From assembly GCA_913776045.1 (NCBI GenBank), contig CAJYOI010000041.1, positions 1 through 64,000 on the forward strand: a stretch of 64,000 nucleotides of DNA. Reading direction: 5' to 3'. Position numbers and translations under genes: made by a program. This DNA comes from an uncultured Sphingomonas sp. Its GTDB lineage: Bacteria; Pseudomonadota; Alphaproteobacteria; Sphingomonadales; Sphingomonadaceae. Positions 39,504 through 49,373 of this stretch are shown here, in pieces. The notes under the pieces are model-generated. The model did not search any database. It was not told the DNA's origin and worked only from the letters and a program-made list of their open reading frames with translations. Position 1 is the first letter of the stretch. Each line of letters starts with the position of its first letter.

Positions 39504-42500
39504 ATGGACAGTTTCTTCGTTCACCGCCCGGTCTTCGCCTGGGTCATCGCCGCGTTCGTCGCGCTGTTCGGCACGATGGCGCTGCTCAACCTGCCGGTGG
39601 AGCAATATCCATCGGTCGCGCCGCCATCGCTGACGCTGACCTATACCTACAACGGCGCCGACGCCGACACGATGGACAAGAACGTCACCGCCGTCATCGA
39701 GCGAGAACTGAACGGCGTCGACAATTTCCTGTACATGGCCTCGACGAGCCGCGCGAACGGCACCGGTGAGATCGTCGTGACCTTCAAGTCGGGCACCAAC
39801 CTCGACGTCGCGCGCACGCAGGTGCAGGATCGCCTGAACCGGGCGGAACCACGTCTGCCCGAAGACGTCCGGCGATTGGGCATTCAGATCACCGACAATT
39901 CGGCAGGCTTCCTGGAAGTGCTGTCGATCCAGTCCAAGACGGGCAAGACGCCCGCGCTGGAGCTGGGCGACTTCGCCTCGACAAAGATCGTCAACGAAAT
40001 CCGGCGCGTCCCCGGCGTCGGCAACGCGCAGCTCTTCTCCTCGGAAAAGGCGATGCGTATCTGGCTCGATCCCGACAAGCTGGCCGGCTTCAACCTGTCA
40101 CCGTCGGACGTGCTGCTCGCGGTGCAGGAACAAAACAGCCAGACCGCGGGCGGCGGTATCGGCGACCAGCCGACGACGCCGGGCACCGAATTCAACGCCA
40201 AGATCGTGACCCAGAACCGCTTCCAGACCCCGGAGCAGTTCCGCCAGATCATCATCAAGGCGAACACGGATGGCTCGACCGTCCGGCTGGGCGATGTCGC
40301 GCGGGTCGAGATCGGCGCCGACAATTATCAGTTCAAATCGACGTTGAACGGCAAGGAAGTTGCAGGCATCGCCGTCCAGCTGGCCACCGGCGCCAACGCG
40401 CTTGCCACCCGCGACGCGGTCAGCGCACGGATGACCGAGCTGCAGCGTACCTTCCCTCAGGATATCACCTGGGAAGTTTCGTATGACACGACGCCGTTCA
40501 TCTCGAATTCGATCGACAACGTCATCCGCACGCTAATCGAGGCGATGCTGCTCGTCTTTTTGGTGATGTTCCTGTTCCTCCAGAACTGGCGCTCGACGAT
40601 CATCCCGGCGATCGTCGTGCCGATCGCGCTGGCGGGCGGCTGCTTGGGGCTCTGGGCGTTCGGTTTCTCGATCAACACGCTGTCGCTGTTCGCGATGGTG
40701 GTGGCGATTGGCATCCTGGTCGACGACGCGATCGTCGTCGTCGAGAACGTCGAACGCATCATGGCCGAGGAAGGCCTGCCGCCCGCGCAGGCCACGATCA
40801 AGGCGATGGGCCAGATTCGCGGCGCGATCATCGGCATCACGCTCGTTCTGATCGCGGTGTTCATCCCAATGGCGTTCTTCCCCGGTTCCACCGGCGGCAT
40901 CTATCGCCAGTTTTCGGTCACGCTCGCCGTTTCCATCTTCTTCTCGGCCGTCCTCGCCCTGACGCTGACCCCGGCGCTGTGCGCGACACTGCTGAAGCCG
41001 CATAAGCATGAGCCCGGCCACACGCCCGAGCCCCGCGAGGGCTGGCGTGGCTATCCGCAGCGCTTCTTCAACTGGTTCAACGACCGGTTCCAGAACGCGA
41101 CCGACCGCTACATCGGCGGCGTCGGCTCGATGCTGTCGCGCCCGGTGCGCTGGCTGGCGGTGTTCCTGGCGGTGCTGGGCGTGACTGCGCTTCTCTTCAT
41201 GCGCCTGCCCGGCGGCTTCCTGCCCGAAGAGGACCAGGGGTATTATGTCATCAGCTACGACGCGCCGGTCGGCGCGACGGCGGAGCGGACGCAGGCCGCG
41301 GTCACCCAGACCGAGAAATTCCTGTTCCAGCAGCCGCAGTTCAGCAAGATGTTCTCGGTCATCGGGTTCAACTTCTTCGGCCAGGGCCAGTCGGCCGCGC
41401 TCTCCTTCGTCATGCTCAAGCCGTATGAGGACCGGCATGGCGCGGAGAATTCGGTCAATGCGCTGATCGGCAAGACCTTCGGCGCGACCGGCGGGATCAC
41501 GGGGGCGACTATCTTCGCGCTCAATCCGCCGGCGATTCAGGCGCTGGGCAATGCCACCGGCTTCTCGATGAAGATCGAGGATCGGGTGGGCAACGACCCG
41601 GCGGGGCTACAACAGGCGATGGGTGCCATCCTGGGCGCGGCATCGCAGAGCAAGATCCTGGCGGGCATCCGCCCCGAGGGTCAGGCCCCGTCGCCACAGC
41701 TGTACGTCGACATCGACCGCGTCCAGGCGCGGGCGCTGGGGCTACAGATTTCTGACGTCAATGCGACGCTCGCGATCACCTTCGGCTCGGCCTACGCCAA
41801 CGACTTCTCGAACCAGGGCACCGTTCAACGCGTCTACCTGCAGGCCGACGCGCCGAGCCGGATGAAGGCGGAGGACGTGCTGGCGTTGCGAGTCCGCAAT
41901 GCGCAAGGCCAGATGGTCCCCTTCTCCGCCTTCACCAAGGTATCGTGGGAGGCCGGGGCGACCCAGCTTCAACGCTACAACGGCTATCCCTCGGCCACGA
42001 TCTCGGGCCAGGCGGCGCCGGGGCAGTCGTCGGGAGCGGCGCTGAAGGAAATGGAGCGGATCGCCGATCAGGTGCTGAAGCCCGGCTTCAGCTACGAATG
42101 GACCGGCACGGCCTATGAGGAGAAGCAGGCTGGTGGCCAGATCGGGCTCTTGCTCGGCCTGTCGCTGGTCGTCGTCTTCCTGCTGCTGGCGGCCCTCTAC
42201 AACAGCTGGGCGATCCCCTTTTCGGTGCTGCTGGTCGTGCCGTTCGGCGTGCTCGGCGCCGTGCTGTTCACAATGCTGCGCGGGCTGTCGGCTGACGTCT
42301 ATTTCAACATCGGCCTCATCACCATCATCGGCCTGGCCGCGAAGAACGCGATCCTGATCGTCGAATTCGCGATCGAGGATGAAGAGCATCAGGAGGGTGA
42401 AGGCATCGAAAAGGTGCGCGAGGCGACGGTAGAGGCATCGCGCCAGCGCCTGCGGCCGATCCTGATGACGTCGCTCGCCTTCATCCTGGGCATGGTGCCG

Positions 42501-42737
42501 CTGGTGATCGCCAGCGGCGCGGGTGCCGCCAGCCGCCATGCCGTGGGAACGGGCGTGATGGGCGGCATGATCGCCGCCACCGCGCTCGGCATCTTCTTCA
42601 CCCCCGTCTTCTACTTCGCCGCGCGGCGCTGGCTGTCGCGCAAGGCGCCGACATCGGTGGCCGCGGACCAGCATGACACGCCGCCGCCCGCACCACGCGA
42701 CGACGACCGTTCGGAAGGAACCCCCGCCCATGCGTAA
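39504..42737 (+). CDS. RND efflux pump, hydrophobe/amphiphile type (AcrB/MexB)
   Basis: The protein has 1077 residues, the length of HAE1 pumps. It starts MDSFFVHRPVFAWVIAAFVALFG and has twelve membrane helices in two sets, with two large periplasmic loops (DADTMDKNVTAVIE, LDVARTQVQDRL). The proton-relay Asp pair sits in GILVDDAIVVVENVERIMAEEG. It exports drugs, detergents or other amphiphiles by proton antiport. The outer-membrane factor gene overlaps its 3' end by 8 bases. Confidence 0.95.
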   Translation: MDSFFVHRPVFAWVIAAFVALFGTMALLNLPVEQYPSVAPPSLTLTYTYNGADADTMDKNVTAVIERELNGVDNFLYMASTSRANGTGEIVVTFKSGTNLDVARTQVQDRLNRAEPRLPEDVRRLGIQITDNSAGFLEVLSIQSKTGKTPALELGDFASTKIVNEIRRVPGVGNAQLFSSEKAMRIWLDPDKLAGFNLSPSDVLLAVQEQNSQTAGGGIGDQPTTPGTEFNAKIVTQNRFQTPEQFRQIIIKANTDGSTVRLGDVARVEIGADNYQFKSTLNGKEVAGIAVQLATGANALATRDAVSARMTELQRTFPQDITWEVSYDTTPFISNSIDNVIRTLIEAMLLVFLVMFLFLQNWRSTIIPAIVVPIALAGGCLGLWAFGFSINTLSLFAMVVAIGILVDDAIVVVENVERIMAEEGLPPAQATIKAMGQIRGAIIGITLVLIAVFIPMAFFPGSTGGIYRQFSVTLAVSIFFSAVLALTLTPALCATLLKPHKHEPGHTPEPREGWRGYPQRFFNWFNDRFQNATDRYIGGVGSMLSRPVRWLAVFLAVLGVTALLFMRLPGGFLPEEDQGYYVISYDAPVGATAERTQAAVTQTEKFLFQQPQFSKMFSVIGFNFFGQGQSAALSFVMLKPYEDRHGAENSVNALIGKTFGATGGITGATIFALNPPAIQALGNATGFSMKIEDRVGNDPAGLQQAMGAILGAASQSKILAGIRPEGQAPSPQLYVDIDRVQARALGLQISDVNATLAITFGSAYANDFSNQGTVQRVYLQADAPSRMKAEDVLALRVRNAQGQMVPFSAFTKVSWEAGATQLQRYNGYPSATISGQAAPGQSSGAALKEMERIADQVLKPGFSYEWTGTAYEEKQAGGQIGLLLGLSLVVVFLLLAALYNSWAIPFSVLLVVPFGVLGAVLFTMLRGLSADVYFNIGLITIIGLAAKNAILIVEFAIEDEEHQEGEGIEKVREATVEASRQRLRPILMTSLAFILGMVPLVIASGAGAASRHAVGTGVMGGMIAATALGIFFTPVFYFAARRWLSRKAPTSVAADQHDTPPPAPRDDDRSEGTPAHA

Positions 42738-44190
42738 GGCCATCCTGCTTGCCGGGCTGAGCACGCTTGCCGGCTGCAACTTCACGCCGAAGTACGTCCA
42801 GCCCACCGCCCCGGTCGCCCCGACCTTTCCGGAAGTGACGACGGGTAGCCGGGCGGCGACCGAGATCGGCTGGCGCGAGTTCTTCGGCGACCCGCGGTTG
42901 CAGGCCTACATCGCCGCCGCGCTCGCCGGCAATCGCGACCTCGCCCAGTCGGTCGCCCGCGTCGCCCAAGCGCGCGCGCAGTATCGGATAACCGATGCCG
43001 ACCGCCTGCCGCAGGTTGAGGGCGTAGCGGGTGTGACCCGCACGCGCCAGCCGCTCAACGCGCTTGGTTTCCCGACCGGGGGAACCGGCACCGATACGGG
43101 CACGGGCACCGGCGGGACGACGACCGAGGCGCCGACCAGCTTTACATTCACCCAATATTCGCTGGGGGTACAGGTCCCGAGCTACGAGCTCGATTTCTGG
43201 GGCCGCGTGCGCAACACCGCGGAAGCGTCGCGTCGCGAGTATCTGGCGACCGTGGAAGCCGAGCGTGCGTTTCGCATCTCGCTGGTCGCGCAGGTCGCCG
43301 CGACCTACCTCCAGATCCGCGCCGGTGAGGAACAGATCGCGCTCGCCGAACGCACGCTGACCGGGCGGCGCGAGGCGGTGACGATCGCGCGCAAGCGGAT
43401 GGATGCCGGCGTCACCTCGACGGTCGATTTCGACCAGACGCGGTTGCTGGTCACGCAGGCGGAAACGCAACTGGCGGAATTGCGCCGAACGACCGCGCAG
43501 AGCGAGAACCTGCTGACGGTGCTGATCGGCGGCCCGATCGCCGGACCCCTGCCGGCACCACGCCCGCTGTCGGATGCCGGGCAGTTCACCGGGATCGAGC
43601 CTGGCCTGCCGTCCGCCCTGCTCGCCAACCGCCCGGACGTGCTTCAGGCCGAGCAGCGGCTGCGCGCGGCCAACGCCAACATCGGCGTTGCGCGTGCGTC
43701 GTTCCTGCCGACGATCTCGCTCACCGGCCTGCTCGGCTTCATCTCGCCGGCGCTCGGCAGCCTGATCGGCGGCGACTCGGTCCAGTATCGGGTCGGGGCG
43801 AACGCGACCCAACCGATCCTGACATGGGGCAAGCGCAGCGCAGGCATCGCTCTGACCCAGGCGCAGGCCGACGAGCTGGTCGCTGCGTATCAGAAGGCTA
43901 CGCAGACCGCGTTTCGCGAGGTCGCCGACGCGCTGGTCGCACGGCGTCGGTATATCGAACAGATCACCGCGCAGCAGAACGCGATCGAGGCGCAGCGTCG
44001 TCTCGTGCGTGTCGCCCGCCTGCGTTACGATAATGGCCTCGCCATCTATCTCGAAGTGCTTGATGCCGAGCGCAATCTGTTCAGTGCCGAACAGCAATTG
44101 CTGCAATTGCGTAGCGCCCAGCTGCAGAATGACGTGTCGCTCTACACCGCACTAGGTGGCGGTCTGAAGGAGGTTTCGACCGTCGGCTGA
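42730..44190 (+). CDS. NodT-family outer-membrane efflux lipoprotein
   Basis: The product is 486 residues from the ATG at 42730. The signal peptide ends in a lipobox (LAGLSTLAGCNFTP). TolC-like repeats are clear: WREFFGDPRLQAYIAAALAGNRDLAQSVARV, SYELDFWGRVRNTAEASRREYLA, VTSTVDFDQTRLLVTQAE, LLANRPDVLQAEQRLRAANANIGVARASFLPTISL and YLEVLDAERNLFSAEQQLLQLR. It forms the exit channel of the adjacent RND pump. It could also serve the peptide exporter downstream, although that locus has its own channel gene. Confidence 0.93.
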   Translation: MRKAILLAGLSTLAGCNFTPKYVQPTAPVAPTFPEVTTGSRAATEIGWREFFGDPRLQAYIAAALAGNRDLAQSVARVAQARAQYRITDADRLPQVEGVAGVTRTRQPLNALGFPTGGTGTDTGTGTGGTTTEAPTSFTFTQYSLGVQVPSYELDFWGRVRNTAEASRREYLATVEAERAFRISLVAQVAATYLQIRAGEEQIALAERTLTGRREAVTIARKRMDAGVTSTVDFDQTRLLVTQAETQLAELRRTTAQSENLLTVLIGGPIAGPLPAPRPLSDAGQFTGIEPGLPSALLANRPDVLQAEQRLRAANANIGVARASFLPTISLTGLLGFISPALGSLIGGDSVQYRVGANATQPILTWGKRSAGIALTQAQADELVAAYQKATQTAFREVADALVARRRYIEQITAQQNAIEAQRRLVRVARLRYDNGLAIYLEVLDAERNLFSAEQQLLQLRSAQLQNDVSLYTALGGGLKEVSTVG

Positions 44191-44317
44191 AGGTTAACAA
44201 ATCGTGTCGGATCGGGACGACGCCGCAAATCTTAACCGGGGACAGATGGTGAGTCGCGCTTTTACATAAATCCCACACCGGCCGAACGGGATCGGACGGG
44301 AAAATAGGGAGCATATC

Positions 44318-44482
44318 ATGCGCGATCTTCGCACCGCCGAACTGAACGCCGTTTCGGGCGGCACCTTCGGCTGCTTCTCGTGGCTGTTCGCTTGCAAGCC
44401 GAAGGTTTCGTACTGCAAGCCGGAACCGAAGTGCGATCCGGCTCCTAAGTGCGAGCCGAAGCCCAAGAAGGGCTGCCGCTAA
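44318..44482 (+). CDS. Double-glycine leader peptide, candidate microcin/bacteriocin precursor
   Basis: This small gene encodes 54 residues. The first 15, MRDLRTAELNAVSGG, are a textbook double-glycine leader of the class II microcin kind (MR-L----E-N-VSGG). The remaining 39 residues, starting TFGCFSWLFACKPK, contain six cysteines and repeats of the form C-x-P-x-P-K (CKPEPK, CDPAPK, CEPKPKKGC) and are strongly basic. A gggagc ribosome site lies 5 bases upstream. A strong hairpin terminator follows at once, and the next gene, convergent, is an ABC exporter with a C39 peptidase that would cut after GG. The mature activity (antibacterial, metal-binding or signalling) is not known. Confidence 0.8.
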   Translation: MRDLRTAELNAVSGGTFGCFSWLFACKPKVSYCKPEPKCDPAPKCEPKPKKGCR

Positions 44483-44491
44483 GATCTCGAC

Positions 44492-44518
44492 ACGGGGCCG
44501 TCCCAAGGGCGGCCCCGT
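44492..44518. terminator. Terminator between the leader peptide and the exporter genes
   Basis: ACGGGGCCG and CGGCCCCGT form a perfect 9-bp stem with a 9-base loop, followed by TTTC on the plus strand. It lies between two convergent genes and can stop transcription from both sides. Confidence 0.8.
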
Positions 44519-44523
44519 TTCAT

Positions 44524-46662
44524 CTACCAGTCCGGCGCCTCTACCGACCGCGGTCTGCCGGGCACCGTCCGCCGCTCGACGACGGCCTTTCCTCCATCGA
44601 CCCGGATGACGATTTCCGCCCGGTCGATCAGCGCAGGCCGATGCGCGATCACAATGCGCGTGATCGGCAACCCAGAGATCATGTCGGCGATGCGAACCTC
44701 GGTATCGGGATCGAGGTTCGCCGTTCCTTCATCCAGGAAGAGGATATCGGGATCGCGGAACAGTGCGCGCGCGAGCATGACGCGCTGGCGCTGCCCTGCC
44801 GAGAGCGCCGCGCCCATGTCCCCGATCAGCGTGCGATACCCCATCGGCATCGCGACGATGTCGTCGTGGATCGCTGCCAGCATCGCTGCGCGCACGACGT
44901 CCTCGGGCTTTGCCGAGGCATCGAAGAAGGCGATATTGTCCTCGATTGTGCCGGTTAGCAGGCAGTCGTCCTGCATGACCGCGCCGATCCGCGCACGCCA
45001 CCCCGCCATCGTCGCCGGGCTCAGGCGTACGCCATCGACCGTGATCGTCCCCGCCCCGGGCGTCAGGAGCCCCAGCAGGATGCGCATCAGCGTGGTCTTG
45101 CCCGCCCCACTGGGGCCTACGAACGCGACGAAGGCGCCCGACGGAATCTTCAGATCGATGCCGTCGAACACCGGGCGCGACGTCGGATCATAGGTGAAGC
45201 TCAGGTCTTCGATCCGCATCTCCGGCCCGGCCAGCAATTCGCGACGCGGGGCGGCGGGGAAGTCCTCCTTCGTTTCGGTCACGATGTCGGACAGCCGGTC
45301 GAGGTGCAGCCCGACCAAGCGCCATTCCTGGAACTTGTCGACCAGCGACACCGCGCTGGCGGCAAAGCTGCCGCGATACGACAGAAAGGCGAGCAACGTG
45401 CCGACCGTCAGCGTGCCGGAGATCACCTGCAGGCCGCCGATGTAGATGCACGCGACCAGCGCCAGGTTGAACAGAAGACCTTCGCCCAGATCGAGCCCGA
45501 TGGCGAAGCGGCGCGTCTTGTACGACGCGCGGATGACGTCGGCATAGCGGTTGCGCCACCCACCCTCGCGCTGCGCCTCATGCCCGTGGATCTTGACGGA
45601 TCGGATCGCGCGGATCGTTTCCATCAGATAGCTCTCCTCGCCCGCGCGGGCGTGGATTTCCTCCTCCGACCGGCGCCGCAGCGCTGGATACATGGCTTGA
45701 GACAGCGCGATGTAGAGCAGGGTCGATCCGATCACGATCGCCGACAGGATGGGGCTGATGAACACCATGACGACGATCGTCGTTACGACCAGCGCGGCAT
45801 CGATGACCACGCTGGCGATGCCGTGCGCGAGGAGTTGCTGGATCGGCTGGATCGACCCGATCCGCGACATCAGATCGCCAATGTGCCGTCGCTCGAAATA
45901 GGCGAGCGGCAAGCGGATCAGGTGACGGACCACATTGCCGCCCATGTGGAACGACAGCGACTGGCCGAGCGACAGCATCACCCATTCGCGCAACGCCTGA
46001 GTGACGGCTCCCAGAACATAGACCGCCCCGAAACCCAGCATCAGAAGAAGCAGCAGGTTGGTGTCAGCCTGCGGAAACGCCTCGTCGATCGCGATCTGGA
46101 TATAGAAGGGCGTCAGCAGCGCGGTGAATTGCATGACCGCCGACAGTGTGATGACCTGTGCCAATGCGCCCCGGAAATTGGTCATCCGGCTCCACAGGTC
46201 GCTCAGCCGCGTCGTGCGACGCGCCTCGACCGGCTGAAACGAGGCGGTAGGCGCGAGTTCCAATGCGACGCCGGTGAAATGCTTGCTTACCTCTCCCATT
46301 GGCAGCACGCGGCGTCCGACCGCGGGATCGAGGATCGTCGCCGACTTGCCGGGCTTCACCGACTCCAGCACGACGAAGTGGTTCAGGTCCCAATGCAGGA
46401 TCGCCGGTAGCTGGAGCTCGGGCAATTCCTCCAGCTCCAGCCGAACCGGCCGCGGGGCCAGCTCCAGCTGGGCGGCGATCGCCATCAGCTGTTCGAGCGT
46501 CGCCCCTTTGATCGACGTCGGAAAATGCAGGCGCAGCCCCGACAGGTTGACGCGGTGGCCGTGATAGCCGGCGACCATCACGATCGCGGCGAGCCCGCAT
46601 TCCGCGGCCTCGGCCTGTAATACCGGCTCCATCCGCCGCGCGGACAACCATTCGAGGCTCAT
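44524..46662 (-). CDS. Peptidase C39-containing ABC exporter for double-glycine peptides
   Basis: The protein has 712 residues. The C39 peptidase domain (1-130) has the catalytic set Cys22 (QAEAAECGLAAIVMV), His95 (ILHWDLNHFVVLE) and Asp112 (ILDPAVGRR), so it should be active. Six membrane helices follow (about 165-440). The ATPase has Walker A GPSGAGKTTLMRIL, signature LSAGQRQRVMLARAL and Walker B ILFLDEGTANLD. It removes double-glycine leaders and pumps the mature peptide out through a type I pathway. The adjacent 54-residue peptide is the obvious cargo. Its start overlaps the end of the HlyD gene by four bases. Confidence 0.93.
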   Translation of the reverse strand: MSLEWLSARRMEPVLQAEAAECGLAAIVMVAGYHGHRVNLSGLRLHFPTSIKGATLEQLMAIAAQLELAPRPVRLELEELPELQLPAILHWDLNHFVVLESVKPGKSATILDPAVGRRVLPMGEVSKHFTGVALELAPTASFQPVEARRTTRLSDLWSRMTNFRGALAQVITLSAVMQFTALLTPFYIQIAIDEAFPQADTNLLLLLMLGFGAVYVLGAVTQALREWVMLSLGQSLSFHMGGNVVRHLIRLPLAYFERRHIGDLMSRIGSIQPIQQLLAHGIASVVIDAALVVTTIVVMVFISPILSAIVIGSTLLYIALSQAMYPALRRRSEEEIHARAGEESYLMETIRAIRSVKIHGHEAQREGGWRNRYADVIRASYKTRRFAIGLDLGEGLLFNLALVACIYIGGLQVISGTLTVGTLLAFLSYRGSFAASAVSLVDKFQEWRLVGLHLDRLSDIVTETKEDFPAAPRRELLAGPEMRIEDLSFTYDPTSRPVFDGIDLKIPSGAFVAFVGPSGAGKTTLMRILLGLLTPGAGTITVDGVRLSPATMAGWRARIGAVMQDDCLLTGTIEDNIAFFDASAKPEDVVRAAMLAAIHDDIVAMPMGYRTLIGDMGAALSAGQRQRVMLARALFRDPDILFLDEGTANLDPDTEVRIADMISGLPITRIVIAHRPALIDRAEIVIRVDGGKAVVERRTVPGRPRSVEAPDW

Positions 46663-47915
46663 CGGATCAGGCTTTCACGGATCGGCGCGAACAGCAGTGC
46701 CCAGAGCGGCCGGCGTTCGAGCACCAGGTCGCCCGACACGGTCATGCCGGGCCGGACCCCGGCAGCCGTCGCGGGAGCCGAGCCGATCGAGTCGATGCGG
46801 ACGCGGACCCGGAAACTCGCCTCCTTGATGCCCAGTGCCGGATCGACCGCCGCCGGATCGACCGCCACGCGCGAAACGTCTGTTACGACACCGCGGCCCG
46901 AACCGTATTTCTGATAGGGAAAGGCATCGAAGCGCAGCCGCACCGTCTGCCCCGGCTTGGCGAAGCCGACCGCCTGCGATGGCGCATAGAACCACGTCTC
47001 CAGCTTCCCGCCATCGGGTACCACCGTCACCAAAGATGCGTCGGGCGTTGCGTGGCGGCCCGGATCGGCGATCAGGTCGGCAATGCGGCCGGCGACCGGC
47101 GCGGTCAGCACGATATGATCCGAACGTACCAGATCGACCCGCTGCGTCATCAGTGTCGATCGTTCGTTGCGCAGCTGCGACGCGGCCTTGCCCGACGTCA
47201 GCCCCCCCTGCGACAGCTTGATGCCGAGGTCGGCGATCGAACTTCGCGCGGTGATGAGGCGCTCGGTCAGGTTCTCGACCTCGCTCTTGCGCATCAGCAA
47301 TTCGGCACGTGCTGCATCGACCTGGCGCTGCGTGCCGGCGCCTTCCCTGGCGAGCCGCTGGCTGCGGGTCACCGATTTCTCGGCCAGCCCAACCTGCTCG
47401 CTGGCGATGCCACGCTGACGTTCGAGCGAAGTGACGCTTTCGATCAGGCCGCGACGCTGCGCCTCGAGCGCGCCGGTTTCGCTCGATGCCAGCCCCTCTG
47501 CAAGGCCGAGCTGGCGGTCGATTTCACCGATCTGCCGGTCGAGTTGCGCGATCTGTTCGGTCAGTCCGCGCTCGCCCTGAGCCAGTCCCAGTTCGACAAG
47601 CGGCTGGCCAGCGGCAATCCGATCGCCCTCGCGGACCAGCACTCGGCGAACCTCGGCGGCGCTACGGGGATACACACGTGCGACGCCCGTGTCATAGGCG
47701 ACGATACCCCGCACCGGGGCGTTGGTCGCGTAGCTGCCGAACACCAGCATCAGGACGATCGCGACCGCGACCACAACAATCACGCCGGTGTAGAGGCGCG
47801 CGGACGGCGGCACCGCGGCGACGACCGTGCCGGCCAACCGCTGACGCTGCGCGTCGATCGCTTCCTGTCTGAAGAGCGTGTCTGACAAAAACGCCTGCCG
47901 TCCCCGAAAATCCAA
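46659..47915 (-). CDS. HlyD-family adaptor of the peptide exporter
   Basis: The protein has 418 residues. One N-terminal membrane helix (ARLYTGVIVVVAVAIVLMLVFGSYA) precedes a lipoyl half (VRRVLVREGDRIAAGQPLVELGL), a coiled coil of about 150 residues (to about 240), the second half VLTAPVAGRIADLIADPGRHATPDASLVTVVP and a beta-barrel. This is the CvaA/HlyD type used with C39 ABC exporters. It is the first gene of the minus-strand exporter pair and is divergent from the outer-membrane factor gene. Confidence 0.9.
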   Translation of the reverse strand: MDFRGRQAFLSDTLFRQEAIDAQRQRLAGTVVAAVPPSARLYTGVIVVVAVAIVLMLVFGSYATNAPVRGIVAYDTGVARVYPRSAAEVRRVLVREGDRIAAGQPLVELGLAQGERGLTEQIAQLDRQIGEIDRQLGLAEGLASSETGALEAQRRGLIESVTSLERQRGIASEQVGLAEKSVTRSQRLAREGAGTQRQVDAARAELLMRKSEVENLTERLITARSSIADLGIKLSQGGLTSGKAASQLRNERSTLMTQRVDLVRSDHIVLTAPVAGRIADLIADPGRHATPDASLVTVVPDGGKLETWFYAPSQAVGFAKPGQTVRLRFDAFPYQKYGSGRGVVTDVSRVAVDPAAVDPALGIKEASFRVRVRIDSIGSAPATAAGVRPGMTVSGDLVLERRPLWALLFAPIRESLIR

Positions 47916-48020
47916 TGACTACGACCTAAGCCAGATTGTCTAAGGCGCGGTTAATCCTGAACAATCGGGCTTTCGGACGTGGAAACCATTCGTAAGGGGG
48001 CGGTCGGCTATGGCGCGACG

Positions 48021-49373
48021 ATGACCCTGCGTTCCTATGTGTCGCTGATCGCCATCGGTACGGCCGCCGGCTGCGCGCCCCCCGCTCGGCTTGCCGTGCC
48101 GCCGTCGCTCTACAGCCAGGACTGGACCGACCCTGTGGCGAGGGATACGCCGACCGTCGCCGACCAAAGCCTGGGTGCCTTGCTCGCCTCACCCGAACTC
48201 GATGCGCTGATCGCGACCGCACGGCGGGACAATCCAACGCTCCGGGTCAGCGACGCGCGGGTGCAGCAGGCGGCGGCGCTGCTTACGGCCGCGCGCTCGA
48301 CGGCGCTGCCCGTGGTGACCGCGAGCGTCCAGCCCGGCGGCACGCGCCTGCCCGGGCAGCGCGAGATTTTCTCGTTCGATCGAAGCTTCGCAAGCATCGA
48401 TGCCAGTTTCGACCCCGATCTGTTCGGCCGCAACCGCGCGCTGCGCCGTGGTGCCGCCGGGCGGTTGCGTGCGGCGGAGCTGGACCGCGTCGCAGCCGGG
48501 ATCGCCATCGAGGCGCAGGTCGCGCTCGCCTATGTTCAGCGCGCGACGCTGGCGCGGCGGATGACGTTGCTCGACTCCAGCGTCGGGCAGGCCGCCGAAC
48601 TCGACCGCATCATGCGCATCCGCCAGCGCGAGGGCGATGCGACACGGGTCGATGTCGGGCTTCAAGCGATCCGACTAAAACAGTTGCGCGCGGAAGCGAC
48701 CCGTCTGTCGGAGGCGTTGCAGGAAACCCGCACATCGCTCGCGGTGCTGACCGGGGCCGAGTCGCCGGGCTTCACGGTGGAAACGGGCGTGCTGGAGGAC
48801 CTGACCGCCCCCGCCCTCGCCGCTCCACCACCGGCCATCCTGATCGAGCGGCGCCCCGACGTGCGTGCGGCGGAGGCCCGGCTCCGCGCGGCCGGCGGAG
48901 ACGTGGCTGCGGCACGGCGCGCCTTCTATCCGTCGCTAAATCTGTCGGCGAGCCTGGTCGCGACGACCGCGTCCCTAGGCCCGCTCGTGCCGATCGCGCG
49001 CATCGGCAACGACCTGTTGGCGCCGATATTCGCGCGGTCGCGACTGAAGGGAGATCTCGCGCTCAGCCTAGGTCAGCAGCGCGAGGCGGCCGAAGCGTAT
49101 CGGCAGTCGGTCCTTGATGCGCTGCGCGGTGTCGAGAACGCTTTGTCCTCGATCCGCCACGCCCGCGAGCGCGAGGCGTTGCTGGCCGACGTCGAGGCGG
49201 AGGCGCGGACGACCACGGCGCTCGCGCGGCGGCAATATCTGGAAGGCGACGTCGATCTTCAGCGTCTGCTCGATGCGCAGGATCTCTTGATCTCGGCGCA
49301 GGACGCCCGCGCCATTGCGATGCAGGAATTGCTCGCGGCGACGATCGCGCTCTACGCGGCGACGGCGGTGTAG
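48021..49373 (+). CDS. NodT-family outer-membrane channel lipoprotein, exporter-associated
   Basis: The product is 450 residues from the ATG at 48021, which places a lipobox (LIAIGTAAGCAPP) at the right distance; a GTG at 47979 is less likely. TolC-type segments are present: LDALIATARRDNPTLRVSDARVQQAAALL, FDPDLFGRNRALRRGAAGRLRAAEL, LIERRPDVRAAEARLRAAGGDVAAARRAFYPSLNLS and QYLEGDVDLQRLLDAQDLLISAQDA. It is divergent from the HlyD adaptor gene, so adaptor, ABC protein and channel together make a complete type I secretion machine. Confidence 0.88.
   Translation: MTLRSYVSLIAIGTAAGCAPPARLAVPPSLYSQDWTDPVARDTPTVADQSLGALLASPELDALIATARRDNPTLRVSDARVQQAAALLTAARSTALPVVTASVQPGGTRLPGQREIFSFDRSFASIDASFDPDLFGRNRALRRGAAGRLRAAELDRVAAGIAIEAQVALAYVQRATLARRMTLLDSSVGQAAELDRIMRIRQREGDATRVDVGLQAIRLKQLRAEATRLSEALQETRTSLAVLTGAESPGFTVETGVLEDLTAPALAAPPPAILIERRPDVRAAEARLRAAGGDVAAARRAFYPSLNLSASLVATTASLGPLVPIARIGNDLLAPIFARSRLKGDLALSLGQQREAAEAYRQSVLDALRGVENALSSIRHAREREALLADVEAEARTTTALARRQYLEGDVDLQRLLDAQDLLISAQDARAIAMQELLAATIALYAATAV

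What the first reader, a model, noticed from the sequence alone, without database searches (positions are those of the whole stretch)
44318..49373. Microcin-like locus: Cys-Pro-Lys-rich double-glycine peptide with a complete C39 type I exporter
A 54-residue gene, too short for normal gene calling, encodes leader MRDLRTAELNAVSGG and a 39-residue core with six cysteines and repeated C-x-P-x-P-K units. It sits convergent to an ABC exporter whose C39 triad (Cys22, His95, Asp112) is intact, with an HlyD adaptor and a divergent outer-membrane channel. Class II microcins use this logic, but a core of repeated Cys-Pro-Lys units is unlike the microcins I know. It could be an antibacterial, a metal-binding secreted peptide or a signal. 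No dedicated immunity gene is obvious, which argues for a non-toxic role or an unusual immunity mechanism.
Basis: partly seen in the sequence, partly recalled or inferred. Interest (0 to 1): 0.85.

Follow-up and report, generated by a model that had tools for sequence, protein, structure and literature searches.

The report
Sphingomonad exported Cys-Pro peptide family
A tiny gene beside a dedicated three-part exporter encodes a short, probably secreted peptide rich in cysteine, proline and lysine; it belongs to a family of mostly repetitive exported peptides in sphingomonad bacteria that I could not find described, and no gene that would protect the producer from a toxin lies beside it.

Summary
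ORF 44318-44482 encodes a canonical 15-residue double-glycine leader and a 39-residue core with six Cys, convergent to a C39 exporter with intact triad, an HlyD adaptor and a divergent NodT-type channel. It is a real gene: conserved, leader dN/dS 0.11. The exporter lies in a 26-row clade (100/100) whose named rows are Sphingomonadales; 24 of 26 loci carry a peptide with the same leader, and all 24 with enough contig carry the divergent channel gene. In 250 Sphingomonas genomes the leader peptide was found in the 10 with this exporter and in none of the other 240 (not every candidate was scored). Cores are diverse: 15 of 24 rich in Lys and Ser/Thr, others Cys-Pro-Lys or Gly-rich; the window's genome also holds Ser/Tyr and Gly/Val peptides elsewhere. 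Many share a Cys-Pro-Cys clasp and a C-terminal Cys. Relatives add a 2OG oxygenase and an unknown ~320-residue protein, each tracking a different core motif (post hoc). No immunity gene fits in the window cassette. Best reading: a secreted, disulfide-forming cationic peptide acting at the cell surface or matrix rather than a class II microcin; a toxin is not excluded. Function is inference.

The parts
44306..44311 (+). ribosome-binding site AGGGAG of the peptide gene
   Evidence: read by eye; purine-rich stretches precede the relatives' ATG too (by eye)
44318..44482 (+). 54-aa double-glycine precursor peptide gene
   Evidence: 80% identical peptide in G557; leader dN/dS 0.11, core 0.48; peptides with this leader in 24 of 26 exporter-clade loci
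44318..44362 (+). 15-residue leader MRDLRTAELNAVSGG
   Evidence: M1, R2, L4, E8, V12, G14 invariant in 11 aligned peptides
44363..44479 (+). 39-residue core: hydrophobic start, then C-x-P-x-P-K units, ends GCR
   Evidence: Cys-Pro-Cys clasp in 18 of 24 family cores (2000 shuffles: mean 9.2, maximum 16) and Cys in the last four residues in 20 of 24 (mean 6.8, maximum 15)
44492..44519 (.). GC-rich hairpin between the convergent genes, probably a shared terminator
   Evidence: fold of 44480-44530, -28.4 kcal/mol; a like GC-rich inverted repeat follows the G557 peptide gene (by eye); consensus scan found no terminator
44524..46662 (-). C39 peptidase ABC exporter, 712 aa
   Evidence: Pfam Peptidase_C39, ABC_membrane, ABC_tran; triad; clade of 26 rows
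46659..47915 (-). HlyD-family adaptor; TTG start at 47915 or 47888
   Evidence: PF13437 3.6e-11; TIGR01843 below cut-off
47979..49373 (+). NodT-type outer-membrane channel, divergent from hlyD; an in-frame ATG at 48021 gives a lipoprotein-like start (by eye)
   Evidence: PF02321 2e-30; TIGR01845 4e-60, just under cut-off; divergent in the 24 clade loci with enough contig

Best explanation
The four genes form a self-contained secretion cassette. The precursor is recognised by its leader; the C39 domain cuts after Gly15; the ABC exporter, HlyD and the cassette's own NodT channel pass the 39-residue core outside. There its Cys residues can form disulfides within or between chains (the Cys-Pro-Cys clasp), and the basic, repetitive part binds anionic surfaces such as exopolysaccharide or LPS, so that the peptide acts as a small surface or matrix component rather than a diffusible toxin. 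Shown by sequence: gene, leader, exporter triad, pairing of leader type and exporter clade, diversity and low complexity of many cores, absence of a neighbouring immunity gene. Inferred: expression, cleavage, export, disulfides, surface or matrix role. I put export and processing at about 0.9 and the surface or matrix role at about 0.45.
For: The leader-peptide model matched, with its leader part, in the 10 of 250 Sphingomonas genomes whose exporter is at least 55% identical and in none of the other 240 (caveats in the full report). Leader dN/dS 0.11, core 0.48, exporter 0.08. Many cores are low complexity: (KGSK)n types, Gly/Val/Leu, Ser/Tyr; the window genome and G557 each carry three such genes. 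Clasp and C-terminal Cys exceed shuffles; net charge is positive in 24 of 24 clade cores. No immunity candidate: 0 ORFs of 30-150 codons mainly outside the four genes in the window, G557 and L037 cassettes, and in nine cassettes none with a 19-residue hydropathy mean of 1.6 or more (maximum 1.52). 24 of 24 clade loci with enough contig keep their own divergent channel gene; 60 of 60 other loci gave no match to it.
Against: Small cationic and, in some members, Gly-rich hydrophobic cores also fit membrane-active bacteriocins; of five relatives scanned, L040 passes two NCBIfam bacteriocin models. Caulobacter Cdz toxins are surface-bound glycine-zipper proteins (PMC5380434, passages), so surface location and toxicity are compatible. 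Immunity may be encoded elsewhere or come from the exporter. A channel gene (31% identical) also follows the non-clade exporter of L052. The window core itself is not strongly repetitive. No expression, secretion or phenotype data.
Confidence: 0.47

Rival explanations
1. It is a bacteriocin: a cationic, partly hydrophobic peptide exported to inhibit related bacteria, with immunity encoded elsewhere, provided by the exporter, or unnecessary.
For: C39 exporter plus MFP plus double-glycine leader is class II microcin logic (PMC9746304, passages). L037, L040, L041 and L052 cores have glycine-zipper-like hydrophobic stretches (by eye). L040 passes TIGR03949 (24.5 bits, cut-off 21.5) and TIGR01847 (19, cut-off 15.7). 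[quoted passage not shown]
Against: No immunity candidate in the window cassette or in eight relatives' cassettes without the unknown protein and the oxygenase. 15 of 24 family cores are Lys- and Ser/Thr-rich and others are repeats. The window peptide matches no bacteriocin model at E<=1.
Confidence: 0.3
2. It is a metal-binding secreted peptide: Cys (and His) in Cys-Pro units bind copper, zinc or another soft metal outside the cell, for protection or uptake.
For: L074 has His where relatives have Cys (KHPAPPVKHPAPPRPPKHH), and L042/L099 ends GHGHGGHC. Six Cys in the window core.
Against: 19 of 24 clade cores have only 1-4 Cys. No gene family of 90 or more residues besides exporter, adaptor and channel is shared by the accessory-free loci beyond syntenic pairs, so no shared metal gene was seen. 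L074 is a single case outside the tree.
Confidence: 0.12
3. It is a signal peptide for quorum or host sensing, like RaxX.
For: RaxX is a double-glycine-leader peptide of a Gram-negative bacterium exported by a type I complex, with a role in plant interaction (PMC6637879, passages).
Against: No shared receptor-sized gene in the accessory-free loci (ORFs of 90 or more residues); cores are very variable.
Confidence: 0.08

Closest known systems
Class II microcins (MccV type)
   Same: GG/GA leader precursor, C39 exporter with intact triad, HlyD-type adaptor
   Different: no immunity gene found beside it; a NodT-type channel gene lies in the cassette; cores are Cys-Pro-Lys or low-complexity; found here in Sphingomonadales
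Cdz contact-dependent bacteriocin of Caulobacter (CdzABCDI)
   Same: alphaproteobacterial type I exporter plus adaptor with small Gly-rich cargo; the L165 and L042 cores are Gly-rich too
   Different: Cdz has a two-protein toxin, immunity protein CdzI and no TolC homologue in the cluster (PMC5380434, passages); here one peptide gene in the window cassette, no immunity gene found, own channel gene
RaxX-RaxSTAB of Xanthomonas
   Same: double-glycine-leader peptide exported without a bacteriocin role, with a modifying enzyme in the cluster (PMC6637879, passages)
   Different: Tyr-sulfated peptide with a sulfotransferase; I saw none among the neighbours but did not search for one
Silaffins and mussel foot proteins (eukaryotic; recalled, not tested)
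   Same: Lys/Ser- or Tyr-rich low-complexity secreted proteins with hydroxylation or phosphorylation; relatives here have a 2OG oxygenase and an unknown protein
   Different: no homology shown; likeness of composition only

Membership tests
class II microcin | precursor with double-glycine leader fused to core | tested here: met
class II microcin | C39 ABC transporter with catalytic triad | tested here: met
   PF03412 1.3e-31; C22, H95, D112
class II microcin | membrane fusion protein | tested here: met
   PF13437 3.6e-11
class II microcin | outer-membrane TolC channel | tested here: inconclusive
   a NodT-type channel is encoded in the cassette; its use is inferred
class II microcin | cognate immunity protein near the peptide gene | tested here: not met
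   no ORF of 30-150 codons mainly outside the four genes in the window; a remote gene, or one beyond the neighbouring genes, is not excluded
class II microcin | antibacterial activity | not testable with these tools
   needs an experiment
Cdz bacteriocin | two glycine-zipper proteins plus CdzI immunity protein | tested here: not met
   one peptide gene in the cassette and no immunity candidate beside it; CdzI itself was not searched for in the genome
bacteriocin models TIGR03949 / TIGR01847 | score above curated cut-off | tested here: not met
   window peptide: no match at E<=1; among five relatives scanned, L040 passes both
NHLP bacteriocin export system (TIGR03796, TIGR03794) | scores above curated cut-offs | tested here: not met
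   475.4 bits against 853.3 and 52.9 against 156.2
sphingomonad exporter-clade cassette (defined here) | exporter in the 26-row clade, HlyD, divergent NodT-type channel, leader MRxLxxxExxxVxG | tested here: met

The most novel reading that the evidence does not exclude
Sphingomonads own a class of secreted modular mini-scaffold peptides: a common leader, a Cys-Pro clasp and an interchangeable low-complexity block, exported by a dedicated tripartite exporter. In many members the block is modified before export: a 2OG-Fe(II) oxygenase acts on [S/P]-P-x-P stretches (prolyl hydroxylation) and the unknown ~320-aa protein acts on the Lys-Ser/Thr repeats (possibly a kinase of a ParB/SerK-like fold), giving a bacterial counterpart of silaffin- or mussel-foot-like matrix peptides. 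The window carries a stripped-down version without Lys-Ser repeats and without both enzymes in its cassette.
Probability: 0.2. Interest if true: 0.85.

Novelty: new variant of a known kind. Interest (0 to 1): 0.6.

Why it matters
Short genes beside C39 exporters are usually filed as bacteriocins. Here an exporter clade carries cargo whose cores are mostly cationic, often repetitive and Cys-clasped, with no immunity gene found, which makes the question 'what do Gram-negative double-glycine exporters secrete apart from toxins?' directly testable in culturable Sphingomonas. The separable association of two accessory proteins with two core motifs, if it holds in a fresh sample, predicts peptide modifications that mass spectrometry can check.

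Tried and rejected
The window peptide alone as query finds 2 of 397 family genomes at E<=1e-3, one of them the window's own; cores diverge too much, so the exporter was used. The weak own-genome match at C33 (E 0.035, one stop inside) overlaps a long dehydrogenase-like frame (named by eye) and was dropped. Of 8 of 397 genomes matched by the 7-peptide model at E<=0.01, five (G120, G121, G125, G158, G220) showed no leader peptide on inspection and were dropped. In one search the matches in G335, G407, G473 and G581 start at model positions 9-28 and lack the leader. In one search the G399 match covers positions 2-60 but has two stops inside and no leader-type ORF. The 2OG oxygenase homologue in the window's own genome (C36, 50% identical) lies beside a frame that looks like a TonB receptor (by eye), not beside a peptide seen there. 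The unknown ~320-aa protein has no Pfam match above cut-off and no meaningful PDB match; its likeness to serine kinase SerK is 12.4 bits, E 0.06, only a lead. The glucosidase-glycosyltransferase pair beside the cassette (names by eye) is kept in 29 of 29 loci read from other Sphingomonas genomes (of 37 other genomes with a match), none with the NodT gene in the about 1.5 kb held on each side; with G557 sharing the window's flanks, the cassette looks like an insertion at this site. TTAAC/GTTAA boxes are enriched upstream of peptide genes (16 of 24 against 33 of 109 control genes, p 0.001), but the motif was picked after reading the sequences and the controls had to have 120 bp of free upstream DNA while the peptides did not, so it is not used as evidence. 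Literature searches.
Full report
The observation. ORF 44318-44482 is as described: a 54-residue precursor with leader MRDLRTAELNAVSGG and a 39-residue core with six Cys and three C-x-P-x-P-K units. The leader has the pattern L-12, E-8, L-7, V-4, GG, canonical for double-glycine leaders (recalled). The exporter 44524-46662 (-) has C39, ABC membrane and ATPase domains and the triad C22/H95/D112. The HlyD gene and the divergent NodT-type channel gene follow. With the starts the gaps are 127 bp before the peptide gene, 41 bp between the convergent genes, 63 bp between the divergent starts and 66 bp to the next gene; exporter and HlyD overlap by 4 bp. The leader pattern occurs once in the window's short ORFs and 0.025 times on average in 40 random sequences.

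It is a conserved gene. In G557 the arrangement is the same, with an 80% identical peptide and a 92% identical exporter. Between the two, dN/dS is 0.11 for the leader, 0.48 for the core and 0.08, 0.05 and 0.07 for exporter, HlyD and channel; with 54 codons the peptide figures are rough.

The exporter clade. In 250 genomes of the genus 75 have an exporter match at E<=1e-60; 10 are 55-100% identical and the next is 44%. The genus is Sphingomonas: the G438 locus is identical in its exporter to S. oligophenolica (L036 and L081). A scan of the named genome collection kept the best 80 of 285 relatives. In a tree of 65 rows, made from 48 of those 80 loci, 20 loci and the window (four duplicates removed), the window exporter falls in a clade of 26 rows with support 100/100 and a stem of 0.80 changes per column. 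Named rows are Sphingomonadales; four are labelled only Proteobacteria or Alphaproteobacteria (L083, L087, L089, L092). All 26 have HlyD, two of them cut by the contig end. The divergent channel gene is present in the 24 loci whose contig reaches it; in L082 and L084 the contig ends first. The 60 other loci (49-50% identity or less at best, some on short contigs) gave no match to that gene, but the non-clade exporter of L052 is followed by a 31% identical channel gene. A 57% identical exporter with divergent channel gene, HlyD, oxygenase, a 324-residue hypothetical protein and two leader peptides sits on a mobilizable 42-kb Blastomonas plasmid; it was not put in the tree, and the next listed plasmid hits are 44% or less.

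The cargo family. 24 of the 26 loci carry a short gene with the leader M-R-x-L-x3-E-x3-V-x-G; none was found in the DNA held for L082 and L089. A model of 11 peptides (A1), run on 250 genomes of the genus, matched at E<=0.05 in 14: the 10 genomes with an exporter of 55% identity or more, and four others whose matches lack the leader part. So the leader was found in 10 of 10 and 0 of 240. Caveats: the ten main peptides helped to build the model, the search scored at most 25 candidates per genome, and I take the sample to be that because the handles agree, although both lists were cut. With all candidates scored, 18 genomes without the clade exporter gave no leader peptide and the added positive control G427 did. 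Cores differ strongly. By the rule K>=6 and S+T>=5, 15 of 24 are Lys- and Ser/Thr-rich, many with (KGSK)-like repeats and Cys near both ends; the rest are C-x-P-x-P-K, Gly-rich hydrophobic, or KGNNG[FY]GNG types. The window's own genome has two more such genes: a Gly/Val/Leu repeat ending GGGRRC (C2) and a CYTPPACQPTPPAC block followed by Ser/Tyr repeats (C66). G557 has a close homologue of the Ser/Tyr peptide between like neighbours, plus a further leader peptide next to it. A Cys-Pro-Cys clasp is found in 18 of 24 cores (2000 shuffles: mean 9.2, maximum 16) and a Cys among the last four residues in 20 of 24 (mean 6.8, maximum 15); all 24 are net positive. The clasp pattern was framed after reading the peptides.

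Accessory proteins in relatives. Within the flanks held, 14 of 26 clade loci have a ~320-aa protein of no known family and 9 of 26 a 2OG-Fe(II) oxygenase (PF13661 in the three scanned). Among the 24 loci with a peptide, the unknown protein goes with Lys- and Ser/Thr-rich cores in 14 of 14, while 1 of 10 loci without it has such a core (L093). The oxygenase goes with a [SP]P-x(0-2)-P stretch in 9 of 9, against 1 of 15 without it (L083). Both rules were chosen after seeing the sequences, and the rows are related, so the p values overstate. On the tree the pairs L086/L093 and L091/L088 agree for the oxygenase; L091/L088 and window+G557 against L081, L083, L035 and L090 agree for the unknown protein; L086/L093 disagrees for the latter. 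The window and G557 sit in a 6-row group (100/99) with repeat-carrying loci. No match to the unknown protein was found in the window's genome; an oxygenase homologue exists there on another contig.

Immunity. In the window, G557 and L037 cassettes no ORF of 30-150 codons lies mainly outside the four genes; in nine cassettes without the unknown protein and the oxygenase (window, L034, L037, L038, L041, L085, L093, L097, L099) 16 such ORFs exist in all, none with a 19-residue hydropathy mean of 1.6 or more (maximum 1.52, L093). The comparison of neighbours used ORFs of 90 or more residues in 11 loci; beyond syntenic pairs the accessory-free loci share only exporter, HlyD and channel. Class II microcins are defined with a cognate immunity protein (PMC9746304, passages); a remote gene remains possible.

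Function. I favour a surface or matrix peptide: cationic, often low-complexity, disulfide-capable, several per genome in two cases, no immunity gene found, own channel. A bacteriocin is the main rival, since some members have glycine-zipper-like stretches and one of five relatives scanned (L040) passes two bacteriocin models. Cdz of Caulobacter shows that surface-bound Gly-rich cargo can be toxic (PMC5380434, passages), but Cdz has an immunity gene and no TolC homologue in its cluster. A His-for-Cys relative (L074) keeps the metal-binding idea alive.

Literature. No title or abstract start in the listings describes this peptide family; four repeat strings gave no paper. The library lacks most subscription journals. 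Seen as passages: PMC5380434, PMC9746304, PMC6637879; all others only as listings. The silaffin and mussel-protein comparison is recalled; the ParB/SerK idea rests on a motif by eye and a 12.4-bit match.

Noticed in passing
L164 (G000:C66:8811-8942, same genome): Orphan leader peptide MRTLSAQEVSTVTGA with a CYTPPACQPTPPAC block and Ser/Tyr repeats, between frames that look like an amidohydrolase and a pyruvate kinase (by eye); a close homologue lies between like frames in G557 (L181).
   Followed up: partly
L165/L080 (G000:C2:3678-3746, same genome): Orphan leader peptide with a Gly/Val/Leu repeat core ending GGGRRC, near frames that look like DNA polymerase IV and DnaE2 (by eye).
   Followed up: partly
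L035, L036 and 12 of the loci L081-L107: A protein family of about 320 aa without Pfam match (motif NGYHRA) beside Lys-Ser/Thr-rich peptides; 14 sequences aligned (A4).
   Followed up: partly
L051 (G000:C51:58288-60357): A second C39 exporter with HlyD in the window's genome (42% identical); the leader patterns found no peptide in the 10.6 kb read.
   Followed up: partly
L177, L085, L091, L218:10207-10389: Peptides with KGNNG[FY]GNG stretches behind the same kind of leader; the Blastomonas plasmid carries one near a KGSK-repeat peptide.
   Followed up: no
upstream of 44318 (-125 and -86) and of 15 other clade peptide genes: GTTAAC/TTAAC boxes enriched upstream of peptide genes (16 of 24 against 33 of 109 controls), possibly a shared regulator; motif chosen after the fact.
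   Followed up: partly
window 39504-44190: Genes that look like an RND efflux pump and its outer-membrane channel (by eye) directly upstream of the peptide gene; shared with G557 but with none of the other nine loci compared there.
   Followed up: partly
L074 (G207:C14): Leader peptide whose core has His where relatives have Cys (KHPAPPVKHPAPPRPPKHH), convergent to an exporter-like frame.
   Followed up: no
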